From Fibrobacter sp. (lineage in GTDB: Bacteria > Fibrobacterota > Fibrobacteria > Fibrobacterales > Fibrobacteraceae): a DNA stretch of 38,911 bases. A model generated the notes under the pieces. It was given only the letters and a program-made list of their open reading frames with translations. It searched no databases and was not told where the DNA came from. Positions 6,201 through 38,386 of this stretch are shown in pieces (the stretch's first letter is position 1; each line of letters opens with the position of its first letter). Both the position numbers and the translations under genes were made by a program. The stretch is taken from NCBI GenBank assembly GCA_024399065.1, contig JAKSIB010000032.1, positions 1-38,911 on the forward strand, written 5' to 3'.

Positions 6201-9200
6201 CAGCCTTTGTAATGATTGCTGCAGCGTCACGTTCACCGGCAAACATTTTCTTCAGGCTTGCGATACGGTCCATAACGGTGTTGTAACTTCCGTTTTCGGA
6301 AGCGTCTACTACATTACTGGTAGCCATAGCACCGGCTGAAAGTCCGGATGATACACGGCCGTTGCCTTTAAGGTTCCGGCCCTGCATTTCAGCAGCCATT
6401 TCCTGAAGCCGTTCGTATTCTTCAAGTAATGCTTTCTTCTGTGCATTGTTGATACGTGCAAGGTCTTCGCGATACTCTGACTTCAGTCTTTCAATTTCTT
6501 TCTTCAGTTTCTTGTTGTCAGTGTCTACTACCTTAATATAGCGGTCAAGTGTAGCGTCCATCGGAAGACTTCCTGACTCAATCTGCTGACGGATCTGCTC
6601 ATCTTCAACGGCTTTCACTGCTTCGCGTCTTTGTGCCGGTGTCATTGCGTCCAGTTCAAGTGCCATTTCTTCCGGCATTACTGAAGTGTCTACGGTGTAC
6701 TCCATACCTTCTGGTACTGCAAGGTTGGCGTCACCAAATACTTCAGCGTAGATTGCACGGTATTCACGCGGTGAACTTTCAATCATGGTAAGCAGTTTCT
6801 TTTTCTGCGTATCATCCAGGTCGTTGGTATAGTGTACCGGGTCCGCCATGACATTTCCGGTAAATCTCTGCATATCCCTGATACGGTCAAACTCTGCAGC
6901 TTCTGTTTCATCTGACGGCTGATCAAGCTGCATACCCATATAACGCCTAGCGCGTTCAAGGAAGTCTTCAAGGTATCCAGGCTTCTTGATAAGCTCTACA
7001 AATTGCTTGTCTTTGTCTGCCTGTAACTCAGGGTCTTCTGCCGGTTCTGCGTTATAGATTTTCTGTGCTGACTCCCATGCTGACTTAAACCAGTTCTGTT
7101 CTGATACGTCATCCCATGCTCCTGACAATACGCCATCGGTATCCATTGCCTTAGCATACTCATACCATTCTTCCCATGACGTAAAGTCTGCGGCTTCTTT
7201 CAGTGTATCTGCGTCAAGTTCGTCCTGAAGATACTGGAAAAGAATAGGTGTACTTTTAATGCTTTTTTCTTTTTTCTTGTTATCAAGGTAAGACTTTTCC
7301 TGTAACAACTTAACAAAGTCAACGAACTGTGCGGTAGTAAACTTGTCTTTATACCACTTATCTTCAAACTGGTATCTATTGTTAGTTGCCAGTACTCTTG
7401 TCCATTCAGTGAACTTTGCTACAAAGCGCGCAAATACTTCCTTGCTGCTCATGTCATATTCACTTGTTGCTTGAGCAACGTCTTCAATGCTATCAAGCAG
7501 AGTAAAGAAGTGGTTAAAGAATGACTTCAGGTCAGTATCTTCTATATCTTTTGTTGCTAAAAATCTGTTTTCGGTCAGATAGTCATCACGGCCAAGTAAT
7601 TCTTTTCCCCATTTATTGTCGATATAGTGTCCTGTTTCGTGGGCTACAGTATTCTGTCCGTCATGTCTGATATAGATGGTTTTTTCTGACGCTTTATAAT
7701 ATCCGGCAGCGTTGTTGTGCCCCGGTGTTTTATCATTGAATACGTATGTAAGTTCTGAATAGTCGATATGAGTATCAAGCGCAAGCATTGTGCTTACAAT
7801 GTAATTACGCTGCCATTCAGAGCTTTCACCTTCAATACCTTTAACCATATTACGCAATTCATCTTCAGTAATTGTCCATGATTTCAGAAGATGTGAGTTT
7901 TCAAGGCCGGTCCACTGATTAGCGCGCGAAACACCGTTATTAAACCGCATAGATGCTTCGCGTACTTTGTTTGGATATAAAGTCCACTGCTTAATTTTTG
8001 AGTTTACTTCAGACTGTGTAAGCCCTACTGTTTCTGCAAAATCAATATTATGTGCCTTTGTTACAAAGTCAGCCCTTGCTTTGTTTACTTCGTCTTTGTT
8101 TGTTTTTGTTACTCTTTGTGAAGCCTTTTTTAGCAGTTCTACACTATCTTCGTCAATTTCTTTTGGTGCATAAAACTTTTCGTCATTAGTATCAAACTCT
8201 TTTGACAGGTCGATAGTGCTTTTAAAAGCTTCTTCTTTTTTCTTTCCGGTAAGAGTTCCGTTTTTGTACGCTTCTACAATATCGTAGATTGTCATTTCTC
8301 CGTCATACAATTCCTGGAACTGTTTGTATAATGGATTGATATATTTATCCATTATCACATACTCGTTTTCAATGTACATTGCTACATCATCAACGCCTTC
8401 TCCGGCAAGCCATTCATCTCCATTTTTATACTGGCCGTCATACCACTGTTTGATATTGGATACAGCAAAAGTTCTCTGGATCATTTCTTTTGCTCTATCC
8501 ATTGTCATTGTCTGGTTTACTCTATCCTGAAAAGTATCTTCATTATCCTGGAACAGAATAGAGTCGTTTTCAGCGTCAAAGTTACCGTTGTTATCGGTGG
8601 CTGATTTAATCTGTGACGAACTGAATGAAACGTATTCATCATTTATGAAATTGCGTTTCATTTCTTCTTTTGGGTCTATGTTATGTTGATAGTCACCATA
8701 ATCGTTGTATACATTCCTGATTATGATTCCGTCATATCCTTCTTCACGTGCCTTATATGCTTCTTCATCAGTAAACGTATCAATTACGCTATCGCCATTT
8801 TCATTAAAACCCTGGAAGTCAGCACCGTTAAAGTCAATGACTTTAGGATTTTTAAGACTCATAAATGAAGCATAGATACCACGCTTATCCGTTCCGTTTA
8901 TTGCAATTTCTTCAGTGCCGGCATAACTTACGGCCTGTGCTTTATTTGGTGTAAAGAATGAAAGATTACCGTCTTCAAAGTTGAAAGTATCAAAACCGCT
9001 ATGCTCTGTTCCATGGTATACAACCATCGGCTCACCGTTTTCGTCTACAACTTTTGAAGCGTTTTGTGGGTCTGATTCCCAGTCACCAAACCAGTTCTTG
9101 AATGATTCAGTGCGTACCTGAAGCCACTGATTTTCTGACAGTTTTGTGTCTGCTCCGTTAGGTGCTTTCATCCACTGGTCGGTACCTTCGTACTGCGCTC

Positions 9201-12200
9201 TAACTGTATCAGATTCGCTTGAATTGTATTTTGACTCAATAGCCTTAGCAGTTCTGATATTGTCTTCAAAGCCATCGTAAGCAGATATAATATCTACAAG
9301 TGAGTTGCCTACAGCCGATGACGCAAGTAACTCTTTAAGTCTTTTGTACTGCTGAGCTTTGTTTGGCTTCTTGTTTTTACTCCACGATCCGCCATTCATA
9401 ACTTCACTAATAAATGATGGTATTCTTCCTGAAGCCTTGAATGCTTCGTAAGTATCTCCGATATTTCTTGCCCATTCCGGAAGGTCACTAATATCTACGT
9501 TATCAGACTTTGGTTTTTCTTTCAGTTCGTCCCAAAGGTTCTGAAGTGCAACGTCATAAGTAGTAGCATTTCCGCCAGTACCAGGTCTGTTGGTGTTTTT
9601 CTTTCCGCTTCTTAAATCATAGTCTTCATAGCCGTTAAGGCCATCATAACTTGGTGGAAGGTCGTGGTCTGAAATACGGATTTTTAATTCATCGACATTG
9701 TATTTACTTTCTTTTCCAGTTTTTTCTGAGTAGTTAGTAATAGTAATGTACTGACTATTGCTAAGGGTAGAAGCATCTCTGCGTGTTTCATATCCCCATG
9801 AGTTAAGTCTTTCTTCAAGATAGTCTGCAATGGCGATTGCTTTTGTAATGCCGTGTTTAATTCTTAACATACCATTACTATCGGTATCCTGCGTCTGAAA
9901 CAGATAGTTATTGTTTACAACGTCACTGAGCTTGTATGCTCTGCGCTGTGCTGCAGTCAGGTTCATTCTTCTCTGGGCAGCGTGTGCATTGCGTTCGTAA
10001 GGGTCAGTAAGGAAATACTGGACGATACCGCCATCGTCTACCAGGTCTGCGTAGTACTCTTTGTTGTTAAGTTCTACGGCTTCCATGGCGTAGTTAAGGT
10101 CACTAAAGAAGTCACCGTTGTATCCTGCTGTATTTACTTTAAGGTCAATGATGTGCTGCAGTTCGTGTACCAGTGCACCCTGAAGGTCTTCAAGGTTCTG
10201 TACGTAGGCAAGGTTTACGCCAATGCCACCTTCAAACTGTACGGCACGGATTCTGCGCGGATCATACACGTAGCCTACACGGATGTTCTTCAGTTCCGGC
10301 TTTGCGGTGTAGAGTTCACCGGCTTTGTAGATTTTTCCTACAGTGTTCTTGTCTGCGTTCAGCAGTTCAAGCTGCTTATCCATTGCGTACTGAAGCAGTT
10401 CAAGATTCTGGGCAGTTACTCCAGGGTTTGCCATTGCACGGCTCATAAATGAAGCAGCGTTGATGGCTTTCTGCATACCGTCACGGTCAATAATTTCGTT
10501 CTGACTGTCATCAAGTTCGTACTGGAATACACCGTCAGGACCTTCACTGTACCCAGTAAGCTTACGGATGGTTTCTTTATCTGCACCGTTATCGCGCATT
10601 TCTTCTGCACGGTCGTACAGTGTCTTTACACGGTCCGTCAGGTTCATTGCACCTTTAACGTCAATGAACTGGTACAGTTCGTTAAGTACGTCATCACCGG
10701 CTTTGTTGATTGCTTCTTCTACACGCTCTGATACGTCTGCATTTGTGTCATCGATTACGCTTTCATTTTCGTTCAGTTGTAAAGAATTATTTGACAACTG
10801 GTTCTGTGATGCGCGTTCATTCTGTTCTACGGCTCTCTGCGCCTGTGCAAGTGCAGTAGATGGGTCCGCAAAAAGCCCTTCGATAAAGTCTGACAGTTCA
10901 GGATTGAAGTCAATCTTACCCTTTAATGAATTGTATACACGTACCAGTGCCTGTGCCAGTTTACGGAAAAGTGGTTCTGCTTCGCCTACTGCCTTACCTT
11001 CAAAAGCATAGCCCTGAAGTGCATAGGCAAAGTCTTCTTCGTTCTGTCTGGTCCAGTTATGGTCGGTTACATTAAACAGTTTTTCAGCCTGCGCCATTTC
11101 ATCGGCAGTAAGCAGTCTGCGGAAAATATGTGCGTTTTCGTGCACAAAAGTAGTAGCGTCACCTTTCTTTGCAGCGTAGATAATGCCCTTTGTGCTTTTA
11201 CCCAGTTCTTCAATATCTACATAGCCACCTATATTGTCGGGATTCATACCCTGACTAAGTGCAGTTTCGTATGCTTCACGGCTTGCTTTATCAAGGAACA
11301 GTTTTCCGTTGAAAATATCCATGTCATATTCTGCAAGGGATTTTCCGTGCTTATTGGCAAAAGATTCTACCAGGGCGATGCCGGTACTGCGCTGCTCTGA
11401 AGTCATGGATGGAATTGCTTCACGGATCTGCCGGTCCCATGACATTCTTGTTTTCTGATTTGCTACTTCGTTTTTGTCAGCAAAGTAGTTCAGTCCGTTC
11501 TGACTGCCCCGTACATTGTTGTTTACCAGTGACTCACGTACTGACGCTGCAGTATTTCCGCGTGTTTCCCATTCGATATTACGGCCGGCAAACTTTTCAG
11601 CGAAGTCGGTGAAAACTTCCTGACGCAGATTTTCGCGTGTTGGTGACATGGTGAAGTCGCTGATAGTGATATTACCGTCAGCGTCTTCGTTGTACATGAT
11701 GCGTCCGTATTCCTGGTTGCCTTTACCTTTTACGATAAGCTGATTTTCAGTGCTTCCATCTTCGTTAGTGTCGTAAACACGGTCCACGTAGTTAAGGCTT
11801 CCGTCTTCGTTCCGGTATTCATCTTCGCGTACCACGCGTCCTGATTCATCGGTAACGGTTTCTTCTACATTGTCTGAAGTATCAATTACTTCTGCTATGT
11901 CTTCTGCCAGTGCACGTTCTGCTTCTGCGCGTTTGTTTCTCTGTGGTTCGTAAGCATTCCAGATTTGTTCCTGCGCTTCTGACTTTGCTTCTTTGGTCAT
12001 TCCTTCGTAAATAGGGCTGTCGGCAGTTTCTTTTTTGAATGCTTCCTTACTATCGATTGTTTCTGCCTTGTTTCCTACATTTGCAAAGTCTTCTACTGTT
12101 GCCTTTCCGTCAAAATACATATTAGGTACACCCAGTACAAGTGCACCCAGTACTCCGCCTTTGAAGTTTTCGATTGCTTCATTTGCAACGTCAAGAGATT

Positions 12201-13260
12201 TCAGTTTGGTCCACGCTGCACCGGTAGCGTCTTTAAGTGAATTGCTTTCTGCATATTTATCAATGGCTGTTGCCAGTGATTTTGCAAGGTCGCTAATAAA
12301 GCCCTGGGCAACTTCTTCCTTACCTTCACCAATTGCGTTCCAGATATATCCACCAACCGCAGACCCCGCAGTACCGGCAATTTTACCCATTGCTCCTGAC
12401 GTGTATACGTTCTGAAAGAATGTTTTAGTTATGTTGTTGTATGCCGATTTTAGTCCTGTGTTTGCTGCCTTTCCGGCTCCAAAAGTAGCAGCGTAAGCAG
12501 GCTGCAAACCGTCAAGCGATTCAACCATACCCTGGAATAACGCAGATACACTTGCGATATTCTTGCTAAGTTGTGGGTCGTGGCCATCAGCAGTAAGGTT
12601 AAGGTATTCTTCGCCTACCATTGCGTCATAACTTGTAAGTGTGCCCGCTACAATGCCACCGATAGGACCTAAAAGAAGGGATCCGGCTGCCTGAGCCATG
12701 ATACCTTTGGTAGTGAATGGTGCTGACATTGCTGCGGTTTTTAAGGCTTCGATAGGAAGGCTTCGTGCCTGTTCATCTGAGTACGCAGATATTTTAGCGT
12801 CAAGTTCTGCAAGTTCGTTCCTGAGTTCATTTACAGTACCGTATCCGTTGTTTTCTGCTTCCATCAGCTTTTTGCCAATATCATTGCGCTTTAACTGCAG
12901 CATACCGATATTGAAGTTATCTGATACTGCAATGAAGTTCGATTTAGGTGTTTTGGTGTCGGACCCACCAATATACTGAGTGTTAAGGGCTGAAAGATTG
13001 CTATATGCTTCTTCAAGCGGAATATCAAGCCATTTGCTATACTGAATTGCAGAAGCAACGTTATAACGCATATCTTCTGCTTCTTCAGGTGTAGAAGCGG
13101 TTGCCAGATAACTCTGAATTACTTCCCTTTCATTCGTGTTGAGTGGTACAAAATATGTGTCCAGTTCTTCTTGCTGTGCTTCATTTACAGCGTTGTATAA
13201 CTGTTTTGCACGTGCAAGTTTTTCGGTTGGTGTTTCAATTCTTTTGAGTTCGTCTGACAT
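3265..13260 (-). CDS. Giant polyvalent internal virion protein with zincin-like and ADP-ribosyltransferase-like domains
   Basis: This 3331-residue protein is encoded by 10 kb, a quarter of the genome. Three separate HExxH-type zincin motifs are visible: HENAH at residues 707-711, HELQH at 1032-1036 and HETGH at 1874-1878. Around residue 1375-1440 there is a block of the type called ART-PolyVal: KNWFGDWESDP, then VDENGEPMVVYHGT with His near 1416, then SFFTPNKAQAVSYA. Hydrophobic, Gly/Ala-rich stretches occur near residues 170-340 and near the C terminus (GYTAAGILVNAVVSGLLTG). Long charged helical segments lie around 2150-2450. Polyvalent proteins of this kind (Iyer and colleagues) are packed in the virion and enter the cell with the DNA, where they counter defences. 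Position directly downstream of two internal-virion-type genes fits a T7 gp16-like ejection role. Start: ATG at 13260 with a GGGG ribosome site. Exact domain borders are inference. Confidence 0.75.
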   Translation of the reverse strand: MSDELKRIETPTEKLARAKQLYNAVNEAQQEELDTYFVPLNTNEREVIQSYLATASTPEEAEDMRYNVASAIQYSKWLDIPLEEAYSNLSALNTQYIGGSDTKTPKSNFIAVSDNFNIGMLQLKRNDIGKKLMEAENNGYGTVNELRNELAELDAKISAYSDEQARSLPIEALKTAAMSAPFTTKGIMAQAAGSLLLGPIGGIVAGTLTSYDAMVGEEYLNLTADGHDPQLSKNIASVSALFQGMVESLDGLQPAYAATFGAGKAANTGLKSAYNNITKTFFQNVYTSGAMGKIAGTAGSAVGGYIWNAIGEGKEEVAQGFISDLAKSLATAIDKYAESNSLKDATGAAWTKLKSLDVANEAIENFKGGVLGALVLGVPNMYFDGKATVEDFANVGNKAETIDSKEAFKKETADSPIYEGMTKEAKSEAQEQIWNAYEPQRNKRAEAERALAEDIAEVIDTSDNVEETVTDESGRVVREDEYRNEDGSLNYVDRVYDTNEDGSTENQLIVKGKGNQEYGRIMYNEDADGNITISDFTMSPTRENLRQEVFTDFAEKFAGRNIEWETRGNTAASVRESLVNNNVRGSQNGLNYFADKNEVANQKTRMSWDRQIREAIPSMTSEQRSTGIALVESFANKHGKSLAEYDMDIFNGKLFLDKASREAYETALSQGMNPDNIGGYVDIEELGKSTKGIIYAAKKGDATTFVHENAHIFRRLLTADEMAQAEKLFNVTDHNWTRQNEEDFAYALQGYAFEGKAVGEAEPLFRKLAQALVRVYNSLKGKIDFNPELSDFIEGLFADPSTALAQAQRAVEQNERASQNQLSNNSLQLNENESVIDDTNADVSERVEEAINKAGDDVLNELYQFIDVKGAMNLTDRVKTLYDRAEEMRDNGADKETIRKLTGYSEGPDGVFQYELDDSQNEIIDRDGMQKAINAASFMSRAMANPGVTAQNLELLQYAMDKQLELLNADKNTVGKIYKAGELYTAKPELKNIRVGYVYDPRRIRAVQFEGGIGVNLAYVQNLEDLQGALVHELQHIIDLKVNTAGYNGDFFSDLNYAMEAVELNNKEYYADLVDDGGIVQYFLTDPYERNAHAAQRRMNLTAAQRRAYKLSDVVNNNYLFQTQDTDSNGMLRIKHGITKAIAIADYLEERLNSWGYETRRDASTLSNSQYITITNYSEKTGKESKYNVDELKIRISDHDLPPSYDGLNGYEDYDLRSGKKNTNRPGTGGNATTYDVALQNLWDELKEKPKSDNVDISDLPEWARNIGDTYEAFKASGRIPSFISEVMNGGSWSKNKKPNKAQQYKRLKELLASSAVGNSLVDIISAYDGFEDNIRTAKAIESKYNSSESDTVRAQYEGTDQWMKAPNGADTKLSENQWLQVRTESFKNWFGDWESDPQNASKVVDENGEPMVVYHGTEHSGFDTFNFEDGNLSFFTPNKAQAVSYAGTEEIAINGTDKRGIYASFMSLKNPKVIDFNGADFQGFNENGDSVIDTFTDEEAYKAREEGYDGIIIRNVYNDYGDYQHNIDPKEEMKRNFINDEYVSFSSSQIKSATDNNGNFDAENDSILFQDNEDTFQDRVNQTMTMDRAKEMIQRTFAVSNIKQWYDGQYKNGDEWLAGEGVDDVAMYIENEYVIMDKYINPLYKQFQELYDGEMTIYDIVEAYKNGTLTGKKKEEAFKSTIDLSKEFDTNDEKFYAPKEIDEDSVELLKKASQRVTKTNKDEVNKARADFVTKAHNIDFAETVGLTQSEVNSKIKQWTLYPNKVREASMRFNNGVSRANQWTGLENSHLLKSWTITEDELRNMVKGIEGESSEWQRNYIVSTMLALDTHIDYSELTYVFNDKTPGHNNAAGYYKASEKTIYIRHDGQNTVAHETGHYIDNKWGKELLGRDDYLTENRFLATKDIEDTDLKSFFNHFFTLLDSIEDVAQATSEYDMSSKEVFARFVAKFTEWTRVLATNNRYQFEDKWYKDKFTTAQFVDFVKLLQEKSYLDNKKKEKSIKSTPILFQYLQDELDADTLKEAADFTSWEEWYEYAKAMDTDGVLSGAWDDVSEQNWFKSAWESAQKIYNAEPAEDPELQADKDKQFVELIKKPGYLEDFLERARRYMGMQLDQPSDETEAAEFDRIRDMQRFTGNVMADPVHYTNDLDDTQKKKLLTMIESSPREYRAIYAEVFGDANLAVPEGMEYTVDTSVMPEEMALELDAMTPAQRREAVKAVEDEQIRQQIESGSLPMDATLDRYIKVVDTDNKKLKKEIERLKSEYREDLARINNAQKKALLEEYERLQEMAAEMQGRNLKGNGRVSSGLSAGAMATSNVVDASENGSYNTVMDRIASLKKMFAGERDAAAIITKADERAKQKVLQQKKKAEADALREMKKLRTNTVKRMVRKVSFTNVNYDEAKKIIAIQNFIDHWVRNGVNLWLGEAEVTASEIYNQYTMDSDFRDEVDKTLTSRKAGARGQRVLRNLRDAMSDDEGLPFSQWTPKMKNDLIEALGANDHVIRLNLDALKKQRQSAIHSFIAKNGTVTEENMKTVYESLPKDVIARIRYTPMNKWTLAQAEELARYIDAIYEDGKKIYAGRQQLRRDRYEELRRRIQDAVKDTGIRIEDDDTPEEIKKKQEKIAKILGLRTQGKGTAASAAEKRSMREKFMAADRGTGNVRRFARVMDNWTEGVFTDTLCFSEYMAWDDEQKAINERSRHVQDYMKEHGITMEKLVEKHTYPGLMDGQDVTYTTDELLYIYIANMDEMSQAAVMYGNFTTAEEKESVKQHEQKYADKEAIKWFMANAENRFNRVLLDAERIINTDKDLAGLVQVIENDYEKQYERLNRVSIDVFNSPVNRVSAYVPLYRLEQTGDTNEQQVAKDILANTTGTPSNYVGRGMTKNRVEISPTNQKPVQLGLFKTWADSMEKTEHFIAYGELVRDLNAIYTSQAASATREAIASRYGQDANNYIKEYINELANPNKGQPKTALDTLVHVMRGQTAPAYLAWKTSGIIKQLCTSPWPFMAYVSPAEYLTAIGEFIKDYNGMNDFVKSRSVFMANRTIDPIIDLIKEAQMNADNKVKASLASFNKIGMQGLEWADWVSVAPGWYAAYKQKTAEIEKAQKNMDPLADGYKDSEAIETEAIAYADDVVRLTQPSGRKADLSPVFKNSAEIAKILLQFQTSLNVIYQNIRFDLPYQIRNHQYRQAAGAVIGYTAAGILVNAVVSGLLTGDGSDDEPEEKLKRAVFYATTQFTDSVPVVGQQLTNVVQKVLTGEGYYSNSTLFPVVDVLTKTVSDVAKDNYAKAAEDFGEGVAYTLGLPVSGTKELLRTFGIGDNEEGLDFNPEALWGRR

Positions 13261-27612: not shown

Positions 27613-27934
27613 ACCGCCACTGTTCTACTTCTTCTTCTGTAGGTCTGTGCCCTTTTGTATCTTTCCATTTCCGGCATACTGCCAGGACCTGCGCTGCTTC
27701 CTTTAGGCAATTCCTTGCGTGTTCTTCTATGCCTTTCAGGTCCGCTTCTTCTATCGGGTGTCTGATTAAGTCAGCCATCATGTCTGCTTCAACGTAGGTT
27801 TCGTACACTTCTTCCTTCAGGACTACTGTGGCTTCGTCATCGTCTTTGTAGGTCGGTCCATGTTGGTCCCGTGCTGCAATGTACTCTGCCAGTACGGCCA
27901 TGTCTACGTATGTGTCACTCATTTCACTGAACAT
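27611..27934 (-). CDS. Hypothetical acidic protein
   Basis: The 107-residue acidic protein is mostly helical, with EADMMADLIRHPIEEADLKG and HARNCLKEAAQVLAVCRKW. The helical arrangement with spaced Glu residues is vaguely like MazG-type nucleotide pyrophosphohydrolases, but the EExxE...D signature is not clear, so no function is assigned. It starts at ATG 27934 with GGAG six bases upstream, overlapping the end of the radical SAM gene. Confidence 0.6.
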   Translation of the reverse strand: MFSEMSDTYVDMAVLAEYIAARDQHGPTYKDDDEATVVLKEEVYETYVEADMMADLIRHPIEEADLKGIEEHARNCLKEAAQVLAVCRKWKDTKGHRPTEEEVEQWR

Positions 27935-28874
27935 AATTCACTCCATTTAGATATTCTTCAAAAGTTTTTGTTTTCGCAAAAATAAAACGGTTGTTCACCC
28001 ACCTTTGCAATTTTAACAAGTTACTTCCTTTTGGTATGTTCTCTTTGTCATATAGCATTACATATGGCCAGTATCCTAAGTCACATAACGTATATATCCT
28101 TTTAAGGTCCTGCTCCATTGTCGTATCAAAATTGCATAGAACAAAAACTACAAGTCTGTGCTGACTTATTTTAGTTTTTTCTCGGAAGGTCTTAAACTTT
28201 GGTATTATCTGTTCTTTATCCTGGTATCTATCCCATGCAAAATACAGTTCCTTTATTTTGATTTTTGATAACATTTCAGCTTTTTCTTCCGTCATCAATC
28301 TAATATCAATACCCTGATTAAAATCTACATAAGCCTTGCTATCTATTAACTGCTGCAGAAGTTCCTTCCATTCTTTAGCTGCAAGTATGTTAGGGTCTGA
28401 CAGTACAATGTTTTTCTGTCCGTCCCAAAACTCAGATAAATCTGCTACCTTGTGAGAGCGTTTCCCTTCCTTTGACTCGACATGGCAAAAATTACAACCG
28501 CGTGGGCAGCCACGTGACAAAAAGCCATAGGCTGTATCTTTGGTCATATCAGGATAAAGTGAATAGTCAGGGTATATATGTTCTACTTCATAAGGTAAAT
28601 CTTTATCTTTCCCTTTATCGTATATTTCTTTGCCGTCTACATTTTCAATCGCATATCCGGATCCGCCTTTTATAACTTCATCTGCATCAACCGGGAAGCA
28701 GTAGTCAGCGGTAAAAGAAAAAACCTTTAACATATAGACTTTATCGCAATGGCCTGTAAGCAACGGGTCATACCATTCAACAGTATCACCTTTACTTTTA
28801 TGCCATGCGCTAAGTTTCATAAGTGGTAAGTTTGGGTAGTTATGGCCGTCAACGTCAATTAAACCGATTTTCAT
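27924..28874 (-). CDS. Radical SAM protein with B12-binding-like N terminus
   Basis: The protein has 316 residues from ATG 28874, which overlaps the preceding stop. The N-terminal 60 residues (MKIGLIDVDGHNYPNLPLMK) resemble the Rossmann-like B12-binding domain of radical SAM methylthio/methyltransferase families. The [4Fe-4S] motif is Cys 123, Cys 127, Cys 130 (RGCPRGCNFC, CxxxCxxC). The rest forms the partial TIM barrel (IDIRLMTEEKAEMLSK). It would cleave S-adenosylmethionine to a radical; the substrate is unknown. Similar stand-alone proteins occur in many gut phages. A role in modifying DNA, RNA or a host metabolite cannot be chosen from sequence. Confidence 0.8.
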   Translation of the reverse strand: MKIGLIDVDGHNYPNLPLMKLSAWHKSKGDTVEWYDPLLTGHCDKVYMLKVFSFTADYCFPVDADEVIKGGSGYAIENVDGKEIYDKGKDKDLPYEVEHIYPDYSLYPDMTKDTAYGFLSRGCPRGCNFCHVESKEGKRSHKVADLSEFWDGQKNIVLSDPNILAAKEWKELLQQLIDSKAYVDFNQGIDIRLMTEEKAEMLSKIKIKELYFAWDRYQDKEQIIPKFKTFREKTKISQHRLVVFVLCNFDTTMEQDLKRIYTLCDLGYWPYVMLYDKENIPKGSNLLKLQRWVNNRFIFAKTKTFEEYLNGVNYVQ

Positions 28875-29395
28875 TATTCTTCTGCTTTCCCTTCGTCTAT
28901 CGTTTCCGCTAACTCCCATTCATCGCATTTATGCTCATAGTTGGTTTGATTTCCCGTCAATCTGCACTCATTTATAAAATCATATTGATATATGTTTTTA
29001 TGCTTGCAGTTTACGCAATTTTTCGTTTTTTCAATCTGCACTTTCAGTTCATCAATCCATTTATTTAACGTGTCGTTATCTTCAAGGATTGCTTTATTCT
29101 GCTCTTTCAGGTTATCAATCTCATGCTTTAGCTCATCGATTCTGTAGCCTGCACGTGATACGTATTCTTTCAGTTCAGCGTTTTCTTTTTCCAGTTCTCT
29201 TATTCTTGCGCTTGTTTTCTTTTGAGCCTTTTCCGTTGCTTTCCACTGTTCTTCTTTACCTAACTTTCTACCTTCTGCAAGTCCATCAAGATAGGCTTGT
29301 TTTATAAAATCATCATTAGTTTTTAATTCGGGATTTCTTTCTTTAACTAAATCAAGATTATCACAATATTCTTCTGCTTTTTCTTCATCTGTCAT
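28874..29395 (-). CDS. Coiled-coil protein with C-terminal zinc-type cysteine cluster
   Basis: The protein has 173 residues from ATG 29395, preferred because GGAG lies eight bases upstream. The frame reaches 20 codons further upstream without a site. A short N-terminal helical part is followed by about 75 residues of coiled coil (RIRELEKENAELKEYVSRAG). Then comes a Cys cluster: NCVNCKH, then NECRLTG, then HKCDEWE. The cluster (CxxC...C...C) looks like a treble-clef or small zinc ribbon. Function is unknown; such proteins are common in phage accessory regions. Confidence 0.65.
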   Translation of the reverse strand: MTDEEKAEEYCDNLDLVKERNPELKTNDDFIKQAYLDGLAEGRKLGKEEQWKATEKAQKKTSARIRELEKENAELKEYVSRAGYRIDELKHEIDNLKEQNKAILEDNDTLNKWIDELKVQIEKTKNCVNCKHKNIYQYDFINECRLTGNQTNYEHKCDEWELAETIDEGKAEE

Positions 29396-29698: not shown

Positions 29699-29855
29699 GC
29701 CATCCCCACACAAAACACCTGGAACTGCCAACGGCAGCCCAGGGACTTACCAAACAAAAACGACTCTAAACCGATGGTTTATCGTCTACATTTATGCCTA
29801 TTATTTCTCCCGGCATGGGATTTGATATTTTTAACCGGTAACACCGGTAATTTCC

Positions 29856-29885
29856 AAAAAGTCCGGAAGGGGTGAAGCCTTCCGG
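29856..29885 (-). terminator. Rho-independent terminator after the methyltransferase locus
   Basis: A perfect 8-base stem, CCGGAAGG (29885-29878) with CCTTCCGG (29870-29863), is followed by ACTTTTT on the minus strand. It ends transcription coming from the early block and the methyltransferase units. A new promoter must lie in the 160 bases before the HTH gene, where further inverted repeats (ACCGG-TAACA-CCGGT at 29834-29848 and TAAACC/GGTTTA near 29770) may be operators. Confidence 0.85.
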
Positions 29886-30192
29886 CTGCGTATCTAGTCC
29901 CGCATTACTGCCATACACCCTGTTACAGTCACTCCAGGTATGGTTCCGGTAGGTGATCTGGTTTCTACTTTACCGCTGTAGAATGGATACACGTGGTGTC
30001 GGACCGCGCTACGGTTGTGCGTCTACCGTAGGCACCAGTGCTGTATCCGGTTGCCGTATTGCTCACTTGCGCTTGATTCGGTTTTACAAGTGAGCACCAG
30101 TGACGGCATGGTTCGTGATTTTCAAAAACGTAATTTTAGGAGTCAGCTTTTTCGCCTGAAGCTGTAACGTACCTTTTCCCGGCAATGCCGGT
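29886..30192 (-). other. Structured non-coding stretch between the last TRD unit and the terminator
   Basis: There is no convincing long gene here. The main visible structure is a perfect 9-base inverted repeat GCTCACTTG/CAAGTGAGC (arms 30061-30069 and 30087-30095), extended by GCCGT/ACGGC pairing. The 9-mer GCACCAGTG occurs twice, once on each side. It could be a 3' untranslated RNA, a regulatory RNA, or a recombination site at the edge of the TRD-unit array. Confidence 0.4.
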
Positions 30193-30212
30193 TTATTTGT
30201 TTTTATCCCCAT
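30084..30212 (-). CDS. Possible small basic protein
   Basis: A 42-residue ATG frame overlaps the end of the last TRD unit (MGIKTNKPALPGKGTLQLQA...). It is basic with no cysteine or TRD core motif. No ribosome site is visible and its 3' end runs through the hairpin, so it may be chance. Confidence 0.2.
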   Translation of the reverse strand: MGIKTNKPALPGKGTLQLQAKKLTPKITFLKITNHAVTGAHL

Positions 30213-30369
30213 CAACGATAGGGTTATTAACTAAGTACCATGATCTGAATGAAGTAGTTACTGCCGGTGATACGGTGTCTGTTCTGTAAACTCTGTCTTG
30301 AAAAGAAGTTTCTGCCCCCCCCGGTCCAGTGTACAGATTTACGCATACCGGCTCTTTATCTTCGTTCAA
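30193..30369 (-). CDS. TRD mini-ORF unit 7 of the cytosine methyltransferase locus
   Basis: The frame of 58 residues starts with TTG at 30369, preceded by GGAG eight bases upstream, and overlaps the stop of unit 6 (TTGA). It begins MNEDKEPVCVNL, matching the start style of units 3 and 4 (MN[E/D][E/D]K). It contains the unit core RVYRTDTVSPAVTT followed by a strand (WYLVNN). This Val-Ser-Pro-Ala-Val-x-Thr pattern is that of target-recognition segments in phage cytosine-5 methyltransferases. A run of eight G (30322-30315) encodes Gly-Gly and is in frame here. One base more or less would disrupt the unit. It lies downstream of the C-terminal methyltransferase motifs, so it could only act as a separate or exchangeable module. 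Confidence 0.65.
   Translation of the reverse strand: MNEDKEPVCVNLYTGPGGAETSFQDRVYRTDTVSPAVTTSFRSWYLVNNPIVDGDKNK
30315..30322 (-). repeat. Poly-G tract (8 G) in TRD unit 7
   Basis: Eight consecutive G on the minus strand, inside codons for Pro-Gly-Gly-Ala. This is a slippage-prone tract; the present length keeps the unit in frame. Confidence 0.8.
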
Positions 30370-30545
30370 TTCATTATCTCCAATATCATGCAGTCTTTCT
30401 GAACAGTAGTAATTGTGTTCATTACGTTCTGCTTTTCGCTTATTTCAATCATTTGAATAAGCACACCGCCACCTGTCCTACTTCTGTCACTTCTGTTTTC
30501 AGGATTTCTTCCAATTTGCCTGCAAACAATTTTTTTCAGTTCCAC
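30366..30545 (-). CDS. TRD mini-ORF unit 6 of the cytosine methyltransferase locus
   Basis: The frame of 59 residues starts with GTG at 30545 (AAAGG nine bases upstream), overlapping the stop of the preceding C-terminal methyltransferase part. It reads VELKKIVCRQIGRNPENRSD and later MNTITTVQKDCMILE. The pair GRNPENxSDR...NTxTTVQKDxxxLE is a familiar stretch of the target-recognition region in many phage and bacterial C5 methyltransferases, normally located before motif IX. Here it stands alone and after motif X. No poly-G tract is present in this unit. Confidence 0.65.
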   Translation of the reverse strand: MELKKIVCRQIGRNPENRSDRSRTGGGVLIQMIEISEKQNVMNTITTVQKDCMILEIMN

Positions 30546-30911
30546 TTTTCTACACCTTTAATATTCAGCTGCCGGAACATGGCACACATAACGCCTACTA
30601 CGATTGAGTTGCCGGCCTGCTTATACATTTGAGTAGGTGAGTTGACTTCTGCCATCTTGTCAATGTCAGTTTCTTCTACATCCATCAGCCGTAAGCATTC
30701 ACGTTCTGTCAATTTCCTGATTCTGTATTCCATGATTGTCCCTTCTTCAATTCTGCATACTTCGCTTGTTGTCGTTATTGTTGGTGAGATCATACCCCCC
30801 CCCCTGGACCCTTCCGCGTCTTAACTCACTTGTCGGGTAAGCCAAATCAGCGACACCACCTACCTGGCACTCTATGTAACCTTGTTTAGTTGCTTGTCTT
30901 ACCAGTATCAT
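30536..30911 (-). CDS. TRD unit 5 fused to methyltransferase motifs IX-X; frame broken at a poly-G tract
   Basis: ATG at 30911 opens MILVRQATKQGYIECQ, then VADLAYPTSELRRGRVQ. After a run of ten G the correct continuation (MISPTITTTSEVCRIEEG) lies in another frame, so as it stands translation would end at 30747. With nine (or twelve) G the frame runs through to 30536 as one protein of about 124 residues. That protein carries unit core ISPTITT, motif IX (RIRKLTERECLRLM) and motif X (QMYKQAGNSIVVGVM). Motif X completes the fold of C5 methyltransferases, so this is the second subunit of the split enzyme. The out-of-frame part could also be started at the ATG just after the G run (30793). GAAG before ATG 30911 serves as a ribosome site. 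Confidence 0.7.
30795..30804 (-). repeat. Poly-G tract (10 G) in TRD unit 5
   Basis: Ten consecutive G on the minus strand between codons for ...GRVQ and ...MISPT. The length seen puts the two halves out of frame; nine or twelve would join them. This is the longest of the three tracts and a strong candidate phase-variation switch for the whole methyltransferase, because motifs IX and X lie behind it. Confidence 0.85.
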
Positions 30912-31057
30912 TCTTCACCAGTATGTGTGGCTCACGCCCCCCCCTGCATTGTTGTAAGTGCAGGACAGATACCTTTAAGGCTGTACACGCATCCCGCAAA
31001 GCCAGTTCCGTTGCCGTATAAACTGCCCAAAAATATTGCTACTTTGTCATCGTTCAT
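30886..31057 (-). CDS. TRD mini-ORF unit 4; frame broken at a poly-G tract
   Basis: ATG at 31057 overlaps the stop of unit 3. The product starts MNDDKVAIFLGSLYGNG and has CVYSLKGICPALTTMQ, a textbook target-recognition core. Then follows a run of eight G. In the present length the frame ends at 30932 after 41 residues. With seven or ten G it continues as REPHILVKNDTGKTSN to the TAA at 30886, giving 56-57 residues like its neighbours. The regained tail (NDTGKT) matches the tail of unit 1 (TDTGKT), which supports that the joined frame is the real one. The joined product overlaps the start of unit 5 by 26 bases. Confidence 0.65.
30937..30944 (-). repeat. Poly-G tract (8 G) in TRD unit 4
   Basis: Eight consecutive G on the minus strand between ...TTMQ and REPHIL. 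Seven or ten would keep the frame; eight truncates the unit. Confidence 0.85.
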
Positions 31058-31211
31058 CTTTCAATAAAAAAAATATTCCTTGCATTTTTACACCCAGTCC
31101 CGCGCATATAGTTGGACATAATCCACTTGTGTCATATACGCAATTACTCTGGTGCTTCCCATAACCTTGTTCCATGTAACCTACGTAGATAACTTTCTTT
31201 TCTTCATTCAT
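31047..31211 (-). CDS. TRD mini-ORF unit 3 of the cytosine methyltransferase locus
   Basis: The 54-residue frame starts with ATG 31211 inside ATGAATGA, overlapping the stop of unit 2. The product MNEEKKVIYVGYMEQGYGKH continues with SNCVYDTSGLCPTICAGLG and a hydrophobic strand (GIFFLL). Hydrophobic strand, Gly, then Val-Tyr-Asp-x-x-Gly-x-Cys-Pro-Thr-Ile-x-Ala is the repeated pattern of target-recognition regions in phage C5 methyltransferases. The unit is intact with no poly-G run. The ribosome site is weak, so translation probably relies on coupling to unit 2. Confidence 0.65.
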   Translation of the reverse strand: MNEEKKVIYVGYMEQGYGKHQSNCVYDTSGLCPTICAGLGVKMQGIFFLLKDER

Positions 31212-31383
31212 TTTCAACCGCCACAATTACAAGATTATCTTTATGACTTTCCAGTCCTTTGTAGTATCTTGATGTTACGGTACTAACAGTTGGTGTAAGC
31301 ACATCACATATCTTCGTATTATCCATGCTTGTCAGTTCTCCGTCAGGCATTTTGTCCAGTTTTGCCGGTATCAGTTTTTTCAA
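31204..31383 (-). CDS. TRD mini-ORF unit 2 of the cytosine methyltransferase locus
   Basis: TTG at 31383 with GGAG nine bases before it gives a 59-residue product, MKKLIPAKLDKMPDGELTSM, then ICDVLTPTVSTVTSRYYKGL and a closing strand (DNLVIVAVE). The core Leu-Thr-Pro-Thr-Val-x-Thr, followed by SRYYKGLxSHKDN, is typical of C5 methyltransferase recognition regions. The start resembles that of unit 1 (MKK...I). A stop (TAG) stands directly before the ribosome site, and the frame overlaps unit 1 by 41 bases. An internal ATG at 31350 is an alternative start. Confidence 0.6.
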   Translation of the reverse strand: MKKLIPAKLDKMPDGELTSMDNTKICDVLTPTVSTVTSRYYKGLESHKDNLVIVAVENE

Positions 31384-31516
31384 TTTCCAAAACTCCTAGC
31401 CGTCCGTACGTATTCCACCCTTTCCAATCTCTCGCAAGTATTGATGGTGATACATCAATAATCTGTTCAATTTTTTTGCAGTTTTCTGTAATAAGTATTC
31501 CTATTGTTTTTTTCAT
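31343..31516 (-). CDS. TRD mini-ORF unit 1 of the cytosine methyltransferase locus
   Basis: The 57-residue frame has an ATG overlapping the stop of the catalytic gene in ATGA, so it is translationally coupled. It reads MKKTIGILITENCKKIEQII, then DVSPSILARDWKGWNTYG and a strand (GVLEIEK), ending TDTGKTGQNA. Val-Ser-Pro-Ser-Ile-x-Ala-Arg-Asp-x-Lys-Gly is a common target-recognition signature of C5 methyltransferases. The motif order suggests that it docks beside the catalytic subunit. Its tail DTGKT recurs in unit 4. Confidence 0.65.
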   Translation of the reverse strand: MKKTIGILITENCKKIEQIIDVSPSILARDWKGWNTYGRLGVLEIEKTDTGKTGQNA

Positions 31517-32253
31517 GCCGTAGCCCTTTTTAGTACTTCCGGGTCAATCGACATAATGAGTTTTTCTGCTTTCTCGCTTGTCACGTAGTATTTTTCAGCA
31601 ACTTCTTCATCAAGGTAGTCAACTACGCTTTTTTCAAGGCGGATCGGCTTCGGAAAATCGTAGTACACGTCATCAAGGAAACTGAACATAAAAGCGCGTT
31701 CACGGTTCTGTGCTACGCCATAGTCCTTTGCGTTCAGTATCTGCAAAAAATTGTGGTATCCCTTGCTTTCCAGGAACTGCTGCCAGTCATTGAAGTCATC
31801 GATAGCACCGGTTCCGCAAACCTGGGGCACATTTTCCATGAACAGAATATCCGGCAGCTGATTGTCAGGCAGTTCATTCAGTATCCGTTCTACTTCCCAC
31901 AACAGTCCGCTTCTTGTTCCGCTACCTTTCTTCATACCCTGACGCTTGCCGGCCAGTGACAGGTCAACACAAGGAAAACTATATGACATGAAATAGCAGT
32001 ACTTATCCTTTTCAGTTATGTTCAGGTCTGCACCGTGCACGTTCTTAATGTCAGAAGTGCCGTAGTTTGTACCGTGAACTGCGTTATATGACTTGATTGC
32101 ATACTTGTCCCATTCGCATACAAAATGATGGTGGAACTTAGCCCCTATGCGCTTCATGGCCATAGACTGACTGCCATAGCCGGCAAAAAGTTCAATCATG
32201 GCAATTTCTTTTTCTATTTTTACGTCTTCGTTACTATCAAACAGTCCGCGCAT
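31513..32253 (-). CDS. DNA cytosine-5 methyltransferase, catalytic subunit (motifs I-VIII only)
   Basis: The 246-residue protein contains the cofactor motif I (IELFAGYGSQS, residues 20-30) and the catalytic Pro-Cys of motif IV (SFPCVDLSLAG, Cys 95). It also has motif VI (MENVPQ, Glu 140) and motif VIII (GVAQNRERAF, about 179-187). It stops shortly afterwards with KAEKLIMSIDPEVLKRATA. Motifs IX and X and any recognition domain are missing, and appear further downstream in separate frames. Split C5 methyltransferases are known (M.AquI), where the second chain carries the recognition domain and motifs IX-X. It transfers a methyl group from S-adenosylmethionine to cytosine, probably protecting phage DNA. 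The start at 32253 has GGGAG eight bases upstream and overlaps the HTH gene before it. Confidence 0.85.
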   Translation of the reverse strand: MRGLFDSNEDVKIEKEIAMIELFAGYGSQSMAMKRIGAKFHHHFVCEWDKYAIKSYNAVHGTNYGTSDIKNVHGADLNITEKDKYCYFMSYSFPCVDLSLAGKRQGMKKGSGTRSGLLWEVERILNELPDNQLPDILFMENVPQVCGTGAIDDFNDWQQFLESKGYHNFLQILNAKDYGVAQNRERAFMFSFLDDVYYDFPKPIRLEKSVVDYLDEEVAEKYYVTSEKAEKLIMSIDPEVLKRATA

Positions 32254-37111: not shown

Positions 37112-37136
37112 CCATGTCGGTATTATGCCGGCATGG
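37112..37136 (+). promoter_or_regulatory. Inverted repeat covering the recombinase start codon
   Basis: CCATGTCGG (37112-37120) pairs with CCGGCATGG (37128-37136) over nine positions including one G-U pair. The ATG of the recombinase (37133) lies in the right arm. In RNA the start codon would be hidden; in DNA it could be an operator. Confidence 0.5.
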
Positions 37137-38386
37137 TTACAACTAAGAATAAGAAGGCATTGCCGCATTACCTTTCTGGCTTGTGTACCGGGAAGTACAC
37201 ATTACGTGAAGCTGCTGAAAGTACCGGTTATACACCTGAGTATCTGTGTACACTGAAAAAGAAGTTCAAAGCGGGATGGGACTGCAAGACTTACAACTAT
37301 AGGCGTACTGCACCGGCAAACAAAATCCCTAAGAAGCAGCGCGATATGATAGTCAATCTATACGTGACTGAGTATCAAGATTATAACTTCAGCTTCTTCC
37401 TGGACTGCCTGATAGAGTTTGAGAATATCAAGATTTCATACCACGCTATCAGGAACATAATGAAGGAATACGGTATCAAGTCACCAAACTGCCGTAGAGT
37501 CAAAAAGACTAAACCGGCCATACACCGTCCACGGCTACGTAGGGAAGCAGAAGGGGATCTGATTCAAATTGATGGTACACCGTACCAGTGGTTCAAGTGG
37601 TGTGGTGATAACAACTACTACTCCATCATGGGTGGTATCGATGATGCTACCGGCAAGTTATACGGCCTGTATATGTGTGAGAATGAATGTTTACACGGAT
37701 ACAATGAGATGATGCGCTACGGTATGAAGCGTTACGGTAAACCACGGTGTATATACTCTGATAAGGCTGCCATTTTCTGCCGGTCACCAAAAGATAAGTT
37801 CAAGCTGACGATAGCAGAACAGTTAGCCGGCCTGCATGAGTCACGGACCCAGTGGCAGCGTGAACTTAACCAGTTAGGTATAGTGCAGATTCTTGCTCAT
37901 TCTCCCCAGGCAAAGGGCCGTGTAGAGCGTATGTGGTCCACAATTCAGGGTAGACTTCCAGGGTTATTCAGGCGTTACGGCATACGTACAATCGCTGACG
38001 CAAACAAGTTCATGGCTGACTATTTCGTGGATTACTTCAATAAACGGTTCAGCGTTAAGGCGGTCCGTGACGATACCTTCTACCTGCCGGTAGATGACAA
38101 TCTTGATGACATTCTGTGTGCAAGGTTTCCCAAACGCACGCATAAAAACGGATTATTTAAGTTCCAAACCTATAACTTTGTTATCAAGGGTATAGATAGG
38201 GTGTCGTACATAGACTTTGAACTGGTTATATCTGAGCGTGGTATATACGCTGACGTAGGCGGTCAACACTGTGAGATAGAATGCACTGACTGGCTCACCG
38301 ATGCACGTGATGAAATTATGCCATTGTGCACCAGGAACATACTCTATGAGTACCTGTACCGTGACATGAAAGAAACTGCGGCTTAA
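37133..38386 (+). CDS. DDE recombinase/transposase, ISNCY (IS1202)-like
   Basis: The 417-residue protein has an N-terminal HTH (YTLREAAESTGYTPEYLCTL, residues 22-41) and a second basic helical domain (about 60-130). The rve-type catalytic core has IQIDGTPYQWF (Asp 147), IYSDKAAIF (Asp 210) and QAKGRVERMW (Glu 265), all three acidic residues present. A C-terminal beta domain follows. The residues around the triad fit the ISNCY/IS1202 group of transposases. Length is close to that family's 430-480. It runs divergently from the early operon and its stop overlaps the convergent small gene at 38383 by four bases. No insertion-sequence ends fit around it, so it looks like a resident phage gene for integration or transposition. 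No Shine-Dalgarno sequence is present and the start codon is within an inverted repeat. Confidence 0.85.
   Translation: MVTTKNKKALPHYLSGLCTGKYTLREAAESTGYTPEYLCTLKKKFKAGWDCKTYNYRRTAPANKIPKKQRDMIVNLYVTEYQDYNFSFFLDCLIEFENIKISYHAIRNIMKEYGIKSPNCRRVKKTKPAIHRPRLRREAEGDLIQIDGTPYQWFKWCGDNNYYSIMGGIDDATGKLYGLYMCENECLHGYNEMMRYGMKRYGKPRCIYSDKAAIFCRSPKDKFKLTIAEQLAGLHESRTQWQRELNQLGIVQILAHSPQAKGRVERMWSTIQGRLPGLFRRYGIRTIADANKFMADYFVDYFNKRFSVKAVRDDTFYLPVDDNLDDILCARFPKRTHKNGLFKFQTYNFVIKGIDRVSYIDFELVISERGIYADVGGQHCEIECTDWLTDARDEIMPLCTRNILYEYLYRDMKETAA

What the first reader, a model, noticed from the sequence alone, without database searches (positions are those of the whole stretch)
30193..32253. Split cytosine-5 methyltransferase with a seven-unit array of overlapping target-recognition mini-ORFs
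The catalytic gene (31513-32253) has motifs I, IV, VI and VIII but ends before the recognition domain. It is followed by seven consecutive units of about 54-59 codons (31343-31516, 31204-31383, 31047-31211, 30886-31057, 30911 onwards, 30366-30545, 30193-30369). Each unit is in a different frame from its predecessor, each overlaps it, and each carries the same core: hydrophobic, S/C/T/M, P/N, T/A/S, I/L/V, x, A/T, then a beta strand. Unit 5 is fused to motifs IX-X. Established: Bacillus phage enzymes such as M.SPRI carry several recognition segments in one chain, and M.AquI is split in two chains. What is seen here, recognition segments as independent mini-genes with two of them beyond motif X, is not a form I know. 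Inference: the catalytic subunit could pair with alternative recognition peptides to give several or changing specificities.
Basis: partly seen in the sequence, partly recalled or inferred. Interest (0 to 1): 0.95.

Follow-up and report, generated by a model that had tools for sequence, protein, structure and literature searches.

The report
Phage methylase with slip-switched recognition modules
A bacterial virus carries the gene of a predicted DNA-marking enzyme cut into a catalytic piece and a row of small recognition-type pieces that lie in alternating reading frames, and runs of the base G inside that row are likely slip-prone switches that would let the virus change which DNA sequences it marks.

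Summary
The layout is real: a 246-aa cytosine-5 methyltransferase core (31513-32253, - strand) is followed by seven recognition-type units and a motif IX-X piece, 8 of 8 in a frame different from the piece before. Two points need correction: units 4 and 5 are interrupted by poly-G tracts (8 and 10 G), and unit 5 is not in frame with motifs IX-X as assembled. The tracts are the key. The window's only G or C runs of 7 or more are the three in this array, though GGG is 6.7% of glycine codons outside it. In 66 related loci with recognised units, non-triplet repeats go with split frames in 29 of 31, against 6 of 35 without. Near-identical loci differ in tract length, and near-identical proteins show alternative readings after one repeat. 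Units keep third-position bias in their own frames in the informative pairs. Best reading: a phase-variable, modular phage methyltransferase. Switching in the window itself, changed specificity and assembly in trans are inferred. Five of the window's eight frame changes have no such repeat. Eight paper searches showed no description.

The parts
31513..32253 (-). catalytic subunit, cytosine-5 methyltransferase motifs I-VIII, 246 aa
   Evidence: PF00145 148 bits, TIGR00675 124.6 bits against cut-off 100.65; nearest solved structures M.MpeI and M.HhaI
31343..31516 (-). recognition unit 1; ATGA overlap with the catalytic stop; SD-like AAGG
   Evidence: ORF; TRD homologue E 2e-7 in single-chain enzyme L030; start site
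31204..31383 (-). recognition unit 2; TTG start with AGGAG 9 bases upstream
   Evidence: ORF; homologue in L070, E 8e-14; 58% identical to the recognition part of P0128; start site
31047..31211 (-). recognition unit 3; start overlaps the stop of unit 2
   Evidence: ORF open from 31226; homologue in L069, E 2e-18
30886..31057 (-). recognition unit 4, interrupted: ORF from ATG 31057 ends at 30932, the rest lies in another frame
   Evidence: homologue E about 1e-6 in L014
30937..30944 (-). poly-G tract, 8 G on the coding strand, inside unit 4
30747..30911 (-). recognition unit 5, first part, up to the poly-G tract, then out of frame
   Evidence: homologue E 1e-16 in L053; 67% identical to P0125 up to the glycine run
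30795..30804 (-). poly-G tract, 10 G on the coding strand, between the two parts of unit 5
30536..30793 (-). end of unit 5 plus motifs IX-X; second ATG at 30733 with AAGG upstream
   Evidence: PF00145 33 bits, profile 266-322 of 324; 85% identical to P0125 from the glycine run on; relatives fused or separate
30366..30545 (-). recognition unit 6, beyond motif X; GTG start with AGGTG 7 bases upstream
   Evidence: ORF; homologue E 6e-7 in single-chain L035
30193..30369 (-). recognition-like unit 7, beyond motif X; TTG start with GGAG 8 bases upstream
   Evidence: ORF; no homologue found outside the window, so its nature rests on position and core motif
30315..30322 (-). poly-G tract, 8 G on the coding strand, in frame inside unit 7

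Best explanation
This is a predicted phage cytosine-5 DNA methyltransferase whose recognition-type modules are laid out in successive, mutually out-of-frame pieces, and poly-G tracts inside three of the pieces are likely slip-prone switches that would bring single modules, and the motif IX-X piece, into or out of frame from one phage generation to the next. Shown: the pieces, their frames, the tracts, homology of units 1-6 to recognition units of other enzymes, and length variation of such tracts in near-identical relatives. Inferred: (1) tract length changes by slipped-strand mispairing in this phage too; (2) the catalytic piece would be completed by a separate polypeptide with a recognition unit and motifs IX-X, as in M.AquI; (3) different module states would methylate different sequences; (4) the phage gains a population with mixed methylation that can pass different host restriction systems. 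Units 1, 2, 3, 6 and 7 are open and may be made constantly as small proteins by coupled translation; units 4 and 5 are the interrupted ones, and unit 7 carries a tract in frame.
For: Tracts: the only G/C runs of 7 or more in 38,911 bases are the three in the array. GGG is 42 of 629 glycine codons in 23 genes outside the array, and none of their 23 Gly-Gly runs is pure GGG. Enrichment: in 66 loci (window included, 4 copies or near-copies dropped), G runs of 8 or more number 52 in 58,094 array bases against 24 in 449,093 other bases; 4-, 5- and 7-base repeats 12 against 10; A/T runs 5 against 54, not enriched. Association: split frames in 29 of 31 loci with such repeats and in 6 of 35 without; 10 of 76 loci had no recognised unit. 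Slippage: L023 and the isolate locus L061 are 97.8% identical over 3,428 aligned bases and differ at all three G tracts (9/10, 9/12, 9/11, the last with a T/G change beside it), with one other internal indel, downstream of the array; L025/L065 differ 8/9 G and 8/7 A, and agree (10/10) at a second G tract. Readings: of 101 parsed homologues (of 120 listed) 17 read the first TRD, 46 read past it out of frame into a second TRD, 8 stop after the repeat, 30 fit none of these; 35 overlapping pairs with a 96.5% or more identical core differ in state, some with different repeat types. L060 read in its three frames gives the tails seen in L060, in P0057 (core 98.8% identical) and in P0024 (94.4%). Window-type relatives: P0125 reads from a unit-5-like module straight into IX-X, joined at the glycine run; P0129 has the same IX-X (97.0% over 67 aa) as its own ORF. 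Selection: substitutions at codon positions 1/2/3 in the units' own frames 17/15/55 for L070/L069 (split frames; one unit did not align and was left out) and 0/0/10 for L065/L025.
Against: No near-identical copy of the window's own array was found as DNA (the collections may leave out records very near the window), so tract variation here is not observed. The window lacks the 4-5-base repeat that sits behind the core in L005, L006, L060 and others, and its junctions core-u1, u1-u2, u2-u3, u3-u4 and IX-X-u6 change frame without such a repeat (u3-u4 holds only a T8 run), so slippage cannot explain all of the layout. Over all loci, 38 of 84 frame-change junctions have no repeat and 27 of 73 junctions with a repeat keep the frame; of 54 G tracts in arrays only 27 lie in or at the edge of a recognised unit. 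Pair tests of selection: L061/L023 is uninformative (1/1/0), L060/L004 weak (64/69/110), and the units of L040/L038 (3/2/21) are in frame with the core in L040, so they do not test split units. Unit 7 has no homologue. No structure of the recognition units was obtained. The separate IX-X in P0129 could be a gene-prediction effect. No activity, specificity or assembly was measured.
Confidence: 0.68

Rival explanations
1. Constant mini-genes: the small units are translated all the time through overlapping stop/start sites and serve one catalytic subunit in trans, giving several specificities at once without any switch.
For: Units 1, 2, 3, 6, 7 are open with overlaps of 4-41 bases; SD-like sites at 6 of 8 piece starts; six loci (L004, L014, L044, L047, L050, L099) have split pieces without the counted repeats; C5-methyltransferase fragments complement in trans (PMC3404938, passages).
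Against: Does not explain the poly-G tracts breaking units 4 and 5, the repeat enrichment or the tract-length variation in relatives. Stand-alone relatives of unit 2 were not found within the limits.
Confidence: 0.2
2. Programmed slippage of ribosome or RNA polymerase on the G tracts makes fused and unfused products from every genome; no heritable switch.
For: Long G and A runs can slip (general knowledge); another gut phage gene, the Quimbyvirus reverse transcriptase, is split over three frames and suggested to use programmed frameshifts (PMC8008677, passages).
Against: 4-, 5- and 7-base repeats as in the relatives are not known to me as translational slip sites, and tract states differ between near-identical natural sequences. 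Both processes could coexist.
Confidence: 0.08
3. Decay or sequencing error: a former single-chain multi-TRD enzyme broken by random frameshifts or by miscounted homopolymers.
For: Homologous units occur in one chain in Dulem virus 39 (L002) and L030; the window is a draft contig and homopolymers are error-prone.
Against: In the window the breaks fall at unit borders or in a glycine run, and units 1-3, 6 and 7 are intact; third-position bias in split relatives; 29 split loci with repeats, some of them near-identical pairs; tract differences also involve an isolate assembly whose title gives 461-fold coverage (L061).
Confidence: 0.04

Closest known systems
Multispecific phage C5-methyltransferases (M.SPRI and kin)
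   Same: One catalytic core with several recognition segments; homologous units occur in one chain in Dulem virus 39 (L002:4983-6566).
   Different: Here the segments are in separate, alternating frames, some interrupted by slip-prone tracts, and two lie beyond motif X. M.SPRI itself is recalled; I did not compare its sequence.
M.AquI, two-subunit C5-methyltransferase
   Same: Core I-VIII and motifs IX-X in different polypeptides (description in PMC3404938, passages); eight relatives read (P0132, P0133, P0134, P0136, P0139, P0141, P0153, P0157) carry a unit-5-like segment plus IX-X as one small protein.
   Different: M.AquI has one recognition region; here several units are on offer and the unit-5 to IX-X link is out of frame as assembled.
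SSR-switched methyltransferases (Type III mod, Campylobacter Type IIG, Neisseria hsdS)
   Same: Homopolymer or tetranucleotide tracts inside a methyltransferase gene decide the frame.
   Different: Those are bacterial systems, seen here as titles and starts of abstracts, other details recalled, and mostly ON/OFF; here a phage C5 enzyme would be switched among recognition modules.
C-terminal phase variation in Helicobacter canadensis (PMC2823697)
   Same: Tract length picks one of three C-terminal readings (passages).
   Different: There most changes are a few residues; in the phage relatives the alternatives are whole recognition modules.

Membership tests
C5-methyltransferase (PF00145 / TIGR00675) | catalytic motifs I-VIII | tested here: met
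C5-methyltransferase (PF00145 / TIGR00675) | motifs IX-X present | tested here: met
   in a separate ORF, 33 bits against cut-off 22
C5-methyltransferase (PF00145 / TIGR00675) | methylates cytosine at C5 | not testable with these tools
   no activity data
M.AquI-type two-subunit enzyme | alpha with I-VIII, beta with recognition region plus IX-X in one chain | tested here: inconclusive
   separate IX-X ORF; unit 5 out of frame with it as assembled; P0125 is continuous
M.AquI-type two-subunit enzyme | both subunits needed for activity | not testable with these tools
   no activity data
Multispecific M.SPRI-type enzyme | several recognition domains in one chain | tested here: not met
   8 of 8 pieces in changing frames
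Multispecific M.SPRI-type enzyme | several methylated motifs | not testable with these tools
   no methylome
Phase-variable (SSR) methyltransferase | non-triplet repeat inside the coding region across which the frame changes | tested here: met
   G8 in unit 4 and G10 in unit 5
Phase-variable (SSR) methyltransferase | tract length varies between near-identical copies | tested here: inconclusive
   met for relatives; no near-identical copy of the window array held
Phase-variable (SSR) methyltransferase | methylation changes with tract state | not testable with these tools
   no methylome

The most novel reading that the evidence does not exclude
Gut phages carry a combinatorial specificity switch: slip-prone repeats of 1, 4, 5 or 7 bases placed between and inside interchangeable recognition modules, with some modules readable in two frames, so that one small locus yields many alternative methyltransferases, in one chain or assembled in trans, and a phage clone enters the next host as a mixture of methylation types.
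Probability: 0.5. Interest if true: 0.95.

Novelty: new variant of a known kind. Interest (0 to 1): 0.86.

Why it matters
Phase-variable methylation is known from bacteria, where it can shape defence against phages. A phage-side counterpart that varies specificity rather than an ON/OFF state would be a bet-hedging answer to host restriction. Among the relatives fetched here the pattern is common: 29 of 66 loci with recognised units have both repeats and split frames. It could also explain some of the short or frame-broken methyltransferase entries in gut phage data, and it offers a system for asking how small a transferable recognition module of a C5-methyltransferase can be.

Tried and rejected
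Led nowhere: the single-protein scan of viral contigs with the catalytic ORF and a DNA search of named phages with the array found nothing. Stand-alone relatives of unit 2: only an identical protein. AlphaFold2 of P0100, a single-chain relative with three units, left residues 250-350 under pLDDT 50, so the units have no model. No tRNA or Rfam match in the window. Of 80 genomes of the window's genus only its own has a match at E 1e-40. Scans with the terminase and radical-SAM genes gave 96 loci, 4 with a methyltransferase by my HMM (one on the contig of L005), none matching the window array as DNA.

Considered and rejected: that the host is Treponema, because the best named relatives (L060, L070) come from Treponema MAGs. 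A ClpB from the L060 genome is 76% identical in the L070 genome but only 50% in the window's genome, so I leave the host unnamed. A first count of split loci without repeats (11) was too high: five loci had a core match whose length is not a multiple of three; one search corrects it to 6. In one search one row started one base off; the frame listed there as the first 'other' frame is the IX-X frame. In one search the second IX-X start is 30733, one base from the coordinate typed.

Papers: PMC3404938, PMC2823697, PMC5476646, PMC8008677 and PMC7468147 were seen as passages only; all others as listings and starts of abstracts. I saw no description of this arrangement in the listings, which show the best-ranked papers only; most subscription journals and preprints are not held. 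Features of M.SPRI, mod, hsdS and Type IIG systems are otherwise recalled.
Full report
What is there. The window is one whole contig (C32) of a 118-contig genome and looks like phage: terminase, head-tail adaptor, major head protein, endolysin/amidase, Sak4-like annealing protein. On its minus strand lies a 246-aa ORF (31513-32253) that matches the cytosine-5 methyltransferase profile over its first two thirds (148 bits). Its predicted structure (mean pLDDT 78) matches M.MpeI and M.HhaI. Downstream come units 1-5, an ORF with motifs IX-X (33 bits), and units 6 and 7. With the core as the first piece, 8 of 8 following pieces are in a frame different from the one before.

Corrections to the observation. 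Units 4 and 5 are not whole. A G8 tract at 30937-30944 and a G10 tract at 30795-30804 (coding strand) leave their two parts in different frames, so unit 5 is not fused to motifs IX-X in this assembly. A third tract, G8 at 30315-30322, lies in frame in unit 7. These are the only G or C runs of 7 or more in the window. GGG makes up 42 of 629 glycine codons in 23 genes outside the array (the catalytic gene included), and none of their 23 Gly-Gly runs is pure GGG, so the tracts are not ordinary codon choice.

What the units are. Short seeds from the window find homologous units in other methyltransferase loci for units 1-6, not for unit 7. In Dulem virus 39 such units follow one another in one 527-aa chain between the core and motifs IX-X. 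They are therefore recognition-region modules by homology and position; no structure of them could be predicted and no specificity is known.

What relatives do. Fetched loci show the same modules with non-triplet repeats between or inside them: (CAGA)11 in L005, (AGAGC)8.6 and G10 in L006, (AACAG)11.4 and two G9 in L060, and six repeats of 1, 4, 5 and 7 bases in L070. Over 66 loci, window included, G runs of 8 or more are 0.895 per kb in arrays and 0.053 per kb elsewhere, while A/T runs are not enriched (0.086 and 0.120 per kb). Of 76 loci, 10 had no recognised unit; of the other 66, split frames occur in 29 of 31 with repeats (G or C runs of 8 or more, longer non-triplet repeats; A/T runs not counted) and in 6 of 35 without (Fisher p 1.2e-10; the loci are related and include near-identical pairs, so this p is too small). 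Junction by junction, 46 of 73 with a repeat change frame and 38 of 145 without one do. Of 54 G tracts, 27 lie in or at the edge of a recognised unit and 27 outside.

Evidence for slippage. L023, from a metagenome, and L061, from an isolate assembly, are 97.8% identical over 3,428 aligned bases and differ at all three G tracts (9/10, 9/12, 9/11); the one other internal indel lies downstream of the array. L025 and L065 differ at one G tract and one A run of the array and agree at a second G tract. L038 and L040 (88.7% identical) differ by one base where L038 has G9 and L040 an interrupted run. Among the 120 listed protein homologues, 101 could be parsed: 17 continue into a first TRD, 46 pass that TRD out of frame and reach a second, 8 stop just after the repeat, and 30 fit none of these. 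Thirty-five overlapping pairs with cores at least 96.5% identical differ in state; 25 were listed. The clearest case is L060: its three frames after the repeat spell, nearly letter for letter, the tails found in L060 itself, in P0057 (core 98.8% identical) and in P0024 (94.4%).

Evidence for function. Between L070 and L069 substitutions fall 17/15/55 on codon positions 1/2/3 in the units' own frames, although these frames differ from each other; one of six units did not align and was left out. L065/L025 gives 0/0/10. L040/L038 gives 3/2/21, but its units are in frame with the core in L040. L061/L023 (1/1/0) is uninformative and L060/L004 (64/69/110), with some units that may not correspond, is weak. 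In the pairs that can be read, the split units are under selection as protein.

The window's own case. It has the G tracts but not the longer repeat behind the core, and five of its eight frame changes have no repeat of the counted kind (one holds a T8 run). Those five are overlaps of stop and start (4, 41, 8, 11 and 10 bases), several with SD-like sites, which speaks for coupled translation of units 1-4 and 6. The tracts concern units 4, 5 and 7 and the link to IX-X. Relatives bear this out at the protein level: P0125 matches the window's unit-5 piece up to the glycine run (67%) and the IX-X ORF from there on (85%) in one chain, while P0129, from a contig of the same length (40,875) as that of P0001 (the 90% identical core), has the same IX-X as a separate ORF (97.0% over 67 aa). 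P0128 joins a unit-2-like module (58% identical) to IX-X, a sign of module shuffling.

How it would work. [quoted passage not shown] Inactive fragments of M.HhaI, M.BspRI, M.BsuRI and M.SssI reassemble; for M.SssI the best C-terminal fragments begin between motif VIII and the recognition domain (PMC3404938, passages). The cut here lies at that place. The likely scheme is a core completed in trans by recognition pieces, with slippage deciding which pieces are whole. That recognition states give different methylation, and that the gain is escape from varied host restriction, is inference from multispecific phage enzymes.

Comparison and novelty. Slip-switched methyltransferases, multispecific phage enzymes and split C5 enzymes are each known; C-terminal switching by tracts is described in Helicobacter canadensis (PMC2823697, passages). 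I saw no account of the combination in the listings of eight searches of the open library. I call it a new variant of a known kind.

Noticed in passing
L005, L006, L010, L060, L070 just behind the core: The first recognition unit lies in a stretch open in two frames: one frame encodes the unit, another runs through it and reaches the next unit. Third-position bias is weaker there (7/2/8 in L070/L069), as dual coding would predict.
   Followed up: partly
window 37133-38383, + strand: Transposase-like ORF (PHROG transposase families) near the end of the contig.
   Followed up: no
window 27924-28919, - strand: Radical-SAM phage protein (phrog_9298) with 47 relatives in viral contigs, up to 76% identical; in L169, on the same contig as L005, it lies just before a repeat-bearing methyltransferase array.
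   Followed up: partly
window 3265-13260, - strand: A 3,331-aa ORF, about a quarter of the contig, beside the structural genes.
   Followed up: no
L061:7524 and L023:5928: G15 and G8 tracts outside the methyltransferase array, perhaps a second slip-prone gene in these phages.
   Followed up: no
L210:6810: Another repeat-bearing array, (GACA)9.25 behind the core, found through the radical-SAM scan; not in the counts.
   Followed up: no
window 29770-30190, - strand: About 400 bases downstream of unit 7 with ORFs of at most 50 aa on this strand and no Rfam match.
   Followed up: no
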